A stretch of DNA of 64,000 nucleotides, from positions 1-64,000 of the forward strand of contig JAUMVN010000007.1 of NCBI GenBank assembly GCA_030530145.1, given 5' to 3'. Origin of the DNA: Coriobacteriia bacterium. Lineage in GTDB: Bacteria > Actinomycetota > Coriobacteriia > Coriobacteriales > Atopobiaceae. How positions within the stretch are numbered: the stretch's first letter is position 1; every line of letters starts with the position of its first letter. Made by a program: the position numbers and the translations under genes. The notes under the pieces were generated by a model. The model was given only the letters and a program-made list of their open reading frames with translations, ran no database searches and was not told the origin of the DNA. Shown here in pieces: positions 27,175-44,884 of the stretch.

Positions 27175-27735
27175 TTACGCCTTCTTGAACGGGAAGTTGA
27201 AGGCGGAAAGAAGCGCCTTGCCCTCCGCGTCGGTCTGGGCGGTGGTCACGATGGTGATGTCCATGCCACGGGTGTGATCGATCTTGTCGAAGTCGATCTC
27301 CGGGAAGATGAGCTGCTCGGTGACGCCCATGGAGAAGTTGCCGCGGCCGTCGAACGACTTGTCGGAGATGCCGCGGAAGTCGCGGATGCGCGGGATGGCG
27401 ATGCAGATCAGGCGATCCAGGAACTCCCACATGCGGTCGCCGCGGAGGGTGACCTTGGCGCCGATGGGCATGCCGGCGCGCAGGCGGAAGGTAGCGATAG
27501 ACTTGCGGGCCTTGGTGACCAGCGGCTGCTGGCCGGTGATGGCGCGCAGGTCGGCGACGGCGCCGTCGATGGCCTTGGAGTCGGTAGCGGCCTCGCCGAC
27601 GCCCATGTTCACGACGATCTTCTCGATCTTCGGGATCTGCATAACGTTGCCGTAGCCGAACTCCTTCTGGAGCTCGTCGCGAACGGTCTCGAGGTACTGC
27701 TGCTTAAGACGCGGGACGTACTTCTCGTCTGCCAT
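27175..27735 (-). CDS. rplE: Ribosomal protein L5
   Basis: The 186-aa 5S rRNA-binding protein contains [29 protein letters not shown] and [18 protein letters not shown] start at ATG 27735 with AAGGAG ~7 nt upstream; a GTG two codons earlier overlaps that site. It is separated from rplX by 432 bp of hairpin-rich DNA where most bacteria have fewer than ~30 bp, so it may depend on readthrough or an internal promoter. Confidence 0.95.
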
Positions 27736-27943
27736 GTTCACTCCTTAAATCATGGGGTTTTAAGCCCGGGGCGTCTGTGCCTCGGACCTCCTTCGGCGTG
27801 GCGCGCCTCCGGAGCCTTATATGTACGTGCATCCGAGACAGAAACCTCCCGTCAACAGACGCGATTGTCTACTTTACGCCTTTCTTCACAGAATAGGTAG
27901 ACCAAATATCACGCCACCCATCCTGCACATCTCTCCCCCACCC

Positions 27944-28032
27944 CTCGGCGGGGCCGGGCTTCTCTCCGGGGGCTGCGCTCGCTTCGCTCGCTTGGATGCC
28001 CCCTACGAGAAGCCCGACCCCGCCCCGCCGAG
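27944..28032. repeat. Long hairpin with 42-nt conserved core (copy 2) between rplX and rplE
   Basis: Arms CTCGGCGGGGC...GGGCTTCTC (27944-27964) and their complement (28007-28032, with a 5-nt insertion) enclose a 42-nt core at 27965-28006. The reverse complement of that core matches the core of the neighbouring hairpin (28089-28130) at 34 of 42 positions. Invariant pieces are GGGCATCCAAGCG and GCGCAGCCC. Confidence 0.85.
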
Positions 28033-28069
28033 GAGGAGCGGTGCTCGAATACATAGCCTCGATAGAGCA

Positions 28070-28149
28070 GAAGACCCCGGATTTTCTCGGAAAGGGCATC
28101 CAAGCGCGCGAAGCGCGCGCAGCCCTTGTAGAGAAAATCCGGGGTCTTC
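28070..28149. repeat. Long hairpin with 42-nt conserved core (copy 1) between rplX and rplE
   Basis: Perfect 19-nt arms (28070-28088, GAAGACCCCGGATTTTCTC, and 28131-28149) enclose a 42-nt core at 28089-28130. The core folds on its own, with AAGGGC/GCCCTT closing an apical GCGCGC-GAA-GCGCGC hairpin. It starts 18 bp after the rplX stop. Together with the 27944-28032 hairpin it occupies much of the 432-bp gap; the rest (27736-27943) shows no gene. Confidence 0.85.
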
Positions 28150-28167
28150 GGACAGATCAGAGCGATC

Positions 28168-28494
28168 TTAGAACTCGGCGCCGCACTTCTTGCAGATGCG
28201 AAGCGAGGTCTTCTTGCCGTTGAGCTCGCCCTGCTTGTGGCCGACGCGGGTGGCCTTGTTGCAGCTCGGGCACACGAGCATCACGTTGGAGACCTGAATC
28301 TTGGCCTCCTTCTCGACGAAGCCGCCCTGCTGGTTGACGGCGGTCGGACGCTGGGCCTTCTTGACGACGGCGACGCCCTCGACGATGACCTTGCCCTCAG
28401 AGGGGAAGGCGCGCAGGACCTTGGCCTGCTTGCCCTTGTCCTTGCCGGAGATGACCTCGACGAGGTCCTCCTTCTTTACAGACATCTTAGGCAC
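28168..28494 (-). CDS. rplX: Ribosomal protein L24
   Basis: The 108-aa 50S assembly-initiator protein has a KOW motif in VEVISGKDKGKQAKVLRAF. Its C-terminal half has two Cys pairs (LVCPSCNKATRVG and RICKKCGAEF), a zinc-ribbon-like feature present in some bacterial L24 proteins. The start is GTG 28494 with GGAGG 8 nt upstream; an ATG three codons later is possible. The downstream gap to rplE is exceptionally long and carries two large hairpins. Confidence 0.95.
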   Translation of the reverse strand: MPKMSVKKEDLVEVISGKDKGKQAKVLRAFPSEGKVIVEGVAVVKKAQRPTAVNQQGGFVEKEAKIQVSNVMLVCPSCNKATRVGHKQGELNGKKTSLRICKKCGAEF

Positions 28495-34002: not shown

Positions 34003-34090
34003 TCTCTACGCAGAACTTTTTCGGGTATCTACCTGCGGCTCGAATTTCCCCGCAGCCGGGCGTATCCATCCCGCGCCGCGGCCGCCGCTC

Positions 34091-34232
34091 CTCTCCCCGA
34101 GTTCGGAAGGCTTCCAAACTTGGGAAGGCTTCCGAACTTTGGTTTACTTCTGTATATGCGCAGGTAGACGGCTTGTCGCTGCTGGCAAGACGGACGTTGG
34201 CAAGTTTGGAAGCCTTCCGAACTCGGGGAGAG
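34091..34232. repeat. Palindrome-flanked dispersed element, copy C1
   Basis: The left side carries a GTTYGGAAG palindrome (34099-34121) and an overlapping partial one (34119-34138). The right side carries a palindrome at 34202-34224. The outer CTCTCCCCGAG/CTCGGGGAGAG pair makes ~30-nt inverted termini. The enclosed core contains GTTTACTTCT, TATAT and GCAGGTAGACGGCTTG, shared with the copy at 44737-44862 in the same orientation. The 673-bp gap 33847-34519 holds this element, a four-copy palindrome, a hairpin next to accDA and the rplC promoter, and no gene. Confidence 0.85.
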
Positions 34233-34312
34233 GGGCAGCGACGGGAGGCGCAGCGGGGCTACGGTACTTCTTGCCACATAAACGCGGAGCCGGCGACGTC
34301 GCGAGCAGGTGG

Positions 34313-44722: not shown

Positions 44723-44736
44723 CCCCCGCCCGCATA

Positions 44737-44862
44737 AAGTTCGGAAGGCTTCCAAACTTTGGAAGCCTTCCGAACTCTAGTTTACTTCTCTATATCCGCA
44801 GGTAGACGGCTTGGTGTTTCTGGCAAGAAGCGCCCGCTCAAGTTTGGAAGCCTTCCGAACTT
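44737..44862. repeat. Palindrome-flanked dispersed element, copy C2
   Basis: GTTYGGAAG palindromes lie at 44737-44759, 44755-44777 (overlapping) and 44840-44862. The core 44778-44839 contains GTTTACTTCT, TATAT and GCAGGTAGACGGCTTG, then CTGGCAAGA, matching copy C1 (34091-34232) in the same orientation. It lies between the convergent 3' ends of birA and rpsJ. Confidence 0.85.
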
Positions 44863-44884
44863 TGGAAAGAAGGGCTTAGACGCG

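What the first reader, a model, noticed from the sequence alone, without database searches (positions are those of the whole stretch)
27736..28167. 432-bp hairpin-rich insertion between rplX and rplE with covarying 42-nt cores
rplX-rplE spacing is normally tiny. Here two long hairpins occupy the gap. Their outer arms are unrelated in sequence but each is self-complementary. Their 42-nt cores are the same element in opposite orientation (34 of 42 identical). The differences at core positions 4-5 (AA vs GG) and 38-39 (TT vs CC) are compensatory, indicating selection on pairing. The opposite orientation hints that a DNA hairpin, not only RNA, is the functional unit, as for elements that insert into hairpin loops.
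Basis: partly seen in the sequence, partly recalled or inferred. Interest (0 to 1): 0.72.

Follow-up and report, generated by a model that had tools for sequence, protein, structure and literature searches.

The report
Capped gene-end hairpins between rplX and rplE
The two hairpins between these ribosomal genes belong to a repeat family in which hairpins at gene ends carry a shared, strictly oriented cap on stems that change rapidly while keeping their pairing; this is a little-described way of building the ends of bacterial genes, not a stray insertion.

Summary
Two long hairpins (27943-28033, 28070-28149) fill the rplX-rplE gap, their 42-nt cores match 34/42 in opposite orientation, and the AA/TT versus GG/CC change is compensatory. 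The interpretation needs revising. In this family (apparently Atopobiaceae) the gap is always wide, and in most relatives examined a terminator-type hairpin follows rplX: plain with a T-tract (e.g. G001, G087) or capped (genus g33, G000). The cores are variants of a repeated apical cap. The main type, centred on AGCGAGCGAAGCGAGCGC, occurs in 39/397 genomes of the order (up to 146 copies), all in this family, on a long stem in nearly every copy read. In G000, copies with a gene end on one side only share one orientation to that gene (13/13). Caps show compensatory pairs, GNA triloops and tandem G.A mismatches. At orthologous rplX ends the lower stem changes as whole pairs (10/16) while the cap stem never varies. 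Hairpin 2 is best read as rplX's 3'-end hairpin; hairpin 1 is its inverted partner, upstream of a conserved promoter-like block and an rplE leader. End-forming activity and cap spread are inferred. Closest kinds: REP/BIME repeats and uptake-sequence terminators; the GTAG tag and RAYT link were not met.

The parts
28070..28149 (-). Hairpin 2: 3'-end hairpin of rplX, stem 28070-28088/28131-28149 (19 bp), 18 nt after the rplX stop codon
   Evidence: orthologous hairpin in relatives
28089..28130 (-). Cap of hairpin 2: 3x3 internal loop (TAC/TCC on the rplX mRNA strand, GGA/GTA on the other), cap stem AAGGGC/GCCCTT, 24-nt loop
   Evidence: same kind of internal loop around a different cap in genus g33
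27943..28033 (+). Hairpin 1: inverted partner, stem 27943-27964/28007-28033 with a 5-nt bulge, same cap type (27965-28006) in opposite orientation
   Evidence: no gene end on either side
27845..27880 (-). Block conserved upstream of rplE in relatives (GGCGTAA..GT......TTGCGTC type), read as the rplE promoter region
   Evidence: sequence comparison; the sigma-70 consensus scan found no match
27742..27816 (-). Conserved two-hairpin leader of rplE
28168..28494 (-). rplX, upstream gene whose 3' end the hairpin follows
   Evidence: tblastn of relatives
27175..27741 (-). rplE, next gene downstream

Best explanation
The two hairpins are members of a dispersed family of capped gene-end hairpins in this bacterial family. 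Each has a gene-specific lower stem of about 20-45 bp, which drifts quickly by paired changes, and a shared apical cap that is conserved and repeated within a genome. Hairpin 2 forms at the 3' end of the rplX transcript and most likely defines or protects that end, either by stopping RNA polymerase without a classical T-tract or by blocking 3' exonucleases after another mode of termination. Hairpin 1, facing the other way, lies between that end and the separate promoter-like block and leader of rplE, and would act on transcription or RNA from the opposite direction. Shown: anatomy, repetition, position, orientation, compensatory change. Inferred: that the hairpins form transcript ends, and how caps spread.
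For: Orthologous rplX ends carry a terminator-type hairpin in most relatives examined: plain with T-tract in G001, G087, G007, G019, G029; differently capped in six g33 genomes and in L012. The cap family recurs in G000 (16 of the main type, 3 of the variant) and in 39/397 genomes of the order, on long stems in nearly all copies read. In G000, 13 of 13 copies with a gene end on one side only have the same orientation to the gene. The g33 cap is also repeated (4-13 per genome) and mostly in one orientation (17 sense, 5 anti; the anti ones mostly 49-102 nt from the gene end). Compensatory pairs in the cap: covariation 0.230 versus at most 0.021 when slid, 0/500 shuffles. At rplX ends 10 of 16 stem pairs change on both sides, cap stem invariant. 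The rplE leader is conserved and covarying.
Against: Capped hairpins lack a T-rich tail (T about 25%), unlike the plain ones, so classical intrinsic termination is doubtful. Hairpin 1 has no gene end beside it. In G076 the orientation bias is weaker and of opposite sign (10 versus 3). Several relatives (e.g. L300, L316) show no clear hairpin after rplX by the finder used. No transcript data were available.
Confidence: 0.66

Rival explanations
1. REP/BIME-like miniature mobile element: the folded single DNA strand (cap plus stem) is the unit recognised and moved by a tyrosine transposase, and its place at gene ends only reflects where insertion is tolerated.
For: High copy numbers in some genomes (118 in G064, 146 in G076); whole hairpins related to each other in G070/G076; inverted pairs; GNA triloops and tandem G.A on one strand, from established knowledge a stable DNA mini-hairpin type; all ten genomes searched hold Y1 transposase genes.
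Against: No conserved GTAG tag; the cap does not flank the Y1 genes found, while other palindrome families do, and G000's own Y1 gene has different flanking repeats. Strict orientation to the gene in G000 is not expected from tolerance alone. No empty site or target duplication was shown.
Confidence: 0.3
2. The cap alone is a short element that enters the tips of existing terminator hairpins, which is why arms are unrelated.
For: The same gene end is plain in some species and capped in others, with different caps in different genera; G087 in g33 is plain where six others are capped; at one other gene end G000 and G058 share GAAGGCCCCGGAC in the stem but have different apices.
Against: Conservation fades gradually from the cap outward rather than ending sharply; stems drift fast by paired changes at one locus, which also makes arms unrelated; capped hairpins have lost the T-tract.
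Confidence: 0.25
3. Ordinary strong terminators that look alike only because of G+C-rich composition and palindrome perfection by template switching.
For: Few G.U pairs (12 of 620 in G000) and almost no one-sided intermediates fit correction by template switching.
Against: The cap sequence is shared to the base across loci and genera, with controls near zero in most genomes, and template switching does not conserve a sequence across loci.
Confidence: 0.08

Closest known systems
REP / BIME repeats (GTAG- and CGTC-tagged palindromes; PMC3733652)
   Same: Dispersed palindromes, mostly downstream of genes, often as close pairs in opposite orientation, plausibly transcribed
   Different: 60-130 nt rather than 20-40; conserved apex on variable stem instead of conserved stem; no constant GTAG/CGTC tag; not next to the Y1 genes found; fixed orientation to the gene in G000
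Rho-independent (intrinsic) terminators
   Same: G+C-rich hairpin a few to about 35 nt after the stop codon, at the same place as plain terminators of relatives
   Different: Much longer stem, repeated structured cap, no T-rich tail
Uptake-signal terminators of Neisseria and Pasteurellaceae (PMC1852404)
   Same: Repeated sequence built into the hairpins at gene ends
   Different: There the repeat forms the stem as an inverted pair; here it forms the apex and the stem is gene-specific
MITEs and other palindromic repeats next to genes (background in PMC3733652)
   Same: Palindromic, non-coding, repeated, intergenic, able to influence RNA of neighbouring genes
   Different: No fixed terminal inverted repeats; arms differ from copy to copy in G000

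Membership tests
REP (GTAG/CGTC-tagged) | short palindromic stem-loop repeated in intergenic DNA | tested here: met
REP (GTAG/CGTC-tagged) | constant GTAG or CGTC tag at one end | tested here: not met
   main cap has none; rplX variant has GTA(G or A) in hairpins 2 and 3 and on the other side in hairpin 1; g33 flank varies TAC/TTC/TCC/TGC
REP (GTAG/CGTC-tagged) | association with RAYT genes | tested here: not met
   25 Y1 loci in 10 genomes: one lies near a copy of this cap (L235, an IS200-sized gene), none is flanked on both sides
BIME | units paired in opposite orientation | tested here: met
   six close pairs in G000, all in the order (-,+)
Rho-independent terminator | stable hairpin shortly after a stop codon | tested here: met
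   mostly 3-27 nt in G000 and g33, some up to 73
Rho-independent terminator | T-rich tail directly after the stem | tested here: not met
   T about 25% in 14 G000 and 20 g33 copies; one search finds no terminator with such a tail at either hairpin
Rho-independent terminator | transcripts end there | not testable with these tools
   no RNA data
Rfam family | match above gathering score | tested here: not met

The most novel reading that the evidence does not exclude
A single-strand DNA cap, stabilised by GNA triloops, tandem G.A mismatches and a GGA/GTA-type internal loop on the strand opposite the mRNA, colonises the tips of gene-end hairpins with fixed orientation to transcription, and different genera carry different caps at the same gene ends: a mobile or copied element specialised on terminators.
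Probability: 0.22. Interest if true: 0.78.

Novelty: new variant of a known kind. Interest (0 to 1): 0.57.

Why it matters
Gene ends are usually seen as plain hairpins with a T-tract. Here many genomes of one bacterial family carry hairpins made of two parts with opposite evolution: stems that change rapidly as whole base pairs and repeated caps that are kept. This gives a natural, testable system for how repeats and transcript ends shape each other, and for telling selection on pairing from template-switch correction. It also warns that unrelated arms around a shared core need not mean insertion.

Tried and rejected
Exact 32-nt core in all genome contigs: no hits, and in the family only G000; the family became visible only after loosening the search. 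An own-genome pattern with a wrong spacing found nothing. Core in viral contigs: none. Y1 transposase as the mover: genes present but not cap-flanked. Conserved spacer between paired hairpins (REPIN-like unit): spacers read look unrelated, by eye only. Rfam: only microRNA-shaped chance matches far below threshold. Opposite orientation rule in G076: seen but weak (10 versus 3), not claimed. Scoring gene ends in genus g30 with G000 codon usage failed and was repeated with G076's own. My first selection of cores fixed some positions; repeated with up to 6 substitutions allowed.

Full report
Observation. The gap between rplX (28168-28494, minus) and rplE (27175-27741, minus) is 426 bp and holds two long hairpins. 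Their 42-nt cores agree at 34 positions in opposite orientation, and the AA/TT versus GG/CC change is compensatory. A third copy on another contig (L003) lies between convergent genes and has CA/TG at that place.

The gap is not an anomaly of this genome. In relatives the rplX-rplE gap is 127-1047 nt, whereas in other actinobacteria it is about -14 to 40 nt. In most relatives a terminator-type hairpin follows rplX directly. G001, G087, G007, G019 and G029 have plain ones with a T-tract. Six genomes of genus g33, and L012, have a longer one with the cap GAGAAGTGCGCTTCGCGGAACTTCTC. G000 has its own cap on the stem GAAGACCCCGGATTTTCTC. A few relatives show no clear hairpin by the finder used. Just before rplE the relatives share a leader, and most share a promoter-like block. 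The two hairpins thus stand between what look like two transcription units.

A repeat family. Exact searches saw only three copies. A looser one showed long hairpins elsewhere in the genome with a related apex. The centre AGCGAGCGAAGCGAGCGC, with up to two mismatches, marks 18 places in G000, of which all but one lie in such hairpins. The longer pattern occurs in 39 of 397 genomes of the order, all in the window's own family, with up to 118 and 146 copies (reversed-pattern controls near zero except in G074). Copies read from many genomes sit on stems of about 20-45 bp. Of 85 distinct cores found with up to 6 substitutions allowed, 72 have at least 18 of 32 flanking positions paired without gaps, and most of the other 13 fall just short of that gapless measure.

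Position and orientation. With a codon-based gene caller, 13 G000 copies have a gene end on one side only, and all 13 have the same orientation to that gene; two more have gene ends on both sides and four on neither, hairpin 1 among them. The g33 cap shows 17 sense, 5 anti, 3 both and 1 neither; the anti cases are mostly 49-102 nt away. In G076 the bias is weaker and reversed, 10 versus 3. Six close pairs in G000 all have the order minus, plus. In the window, and before rpsO (assigned by me from sequence; L217:4366-4590), one member follows a stop codon and the other lies upstream of the next gene's leader. Unlike plain terminators, the capped hairpins have no T-rich tail.

Structure of the cap. 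Thirty distinct gapless cores give 97% paired cells, covariation 0.230 against at most 0.021 for slid partners, and no shuffle of 500 as high. Varying pairs include A-T/C-G/G-C at the junction, A-T/G-C in the first mini-hairpin and G-C/A-T in the second. Both mini-hairpins end mostly in GNA with a variable N, and the tandem G.A mismatches of the second mini-hairpin were in all 72 paired copies. GNA loops and such G.A pairs are known from my own knowledge as stable in DNA; in G000 they lie on the strand opposite the mRNA. That points to a DNA role but does not prove it, since the transcript can fold too (one search finds both strands of hairpin 2 about equally stable).

Stem against cap. In seven orthologous rplX hairpins, 10 of 16 lower-stem pairs have changed on both sides, with one G.U and one unpaired cell among 112, while all 7 cap-stem pairs are invariant. 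Unrelated arms around a shared core therefore need no insertion into loops: stems drift fast in pairs. Conservation fades gradually outward from the cap. In G070 and G076 whole hairpins are related to each other, so whole hairpins have also multiplied.

Mechanism. Best reading: hairpin 2 is the 3'-end hairpin of rplX, and hairpin 1 its inverted partner in front of the rplE unit. Whether polymerase stops there or exonucleases are blocked is open. How caps spread is open: Y1 transposase genes exist in these genomes but are not flanked by this cap, while other palindromes do flank them.

Known kinds. REP/BIME repeats share dispersion, gene-end position and inverted pairing, but the constant tag and the RAYT link were not met. 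Intrinsic terminators share position, but the T-tail was not met. Uptake-signal terminators use the repeat as stem, not apex (PMC1852404). I found no paper on capped gene-end hairpins in the library searched, which holds open-access papers only. Taxonomy of the window is inferred from rplE matches to Thermophilibacter and Olsenella at about 90%.

Noticed in passing
window 27742-27816 (-): Conserved two-hairpin leader of rplE in Atopobiaceae; 15 predicted pairs, 9 with changes on both sides in 16 sequences. No Rfam match, and rplE is not named in the ribosomal-leader list of PMC7247131: a candidate new ribosomal-protein leader.
   Followed up: partly
G076 loci L195, L199, L202, L204, L207, L208, L211: A second cap family with apex like CGCGCAGTTCGCGAAGCGCTGTTCGAGCA on unrelated arms.
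   Followed up: no
L243, L245, L250, L254, L257: Other palindromes (GGGACAGTCCC and CTCAAGGGGGAGTACCCC types) lie on both sides of RAYT-like Y1 genes.
   Followed up: partly
L241 955-1031 and 2108-2184: The only Y1 gene found in the window's genome is flanked by inverted arrays of a 35-nt repeat (GAGAGCTTTGGGGAC type), 86% complementary over 77 nt.
   Followed up: no
window 34090-34233 and 44736-44863; L221, L229, L231: Repeat with AGTTCGGAAGGCTTCCAAACTT arms and loops of about 80 nt.
   Followed up: no
L013 and L301 (G082) rplX-rplE gap: The gap is 1047 nt and seems to hold an extra gene; the two loci look like the same genome.
   Followed up: no
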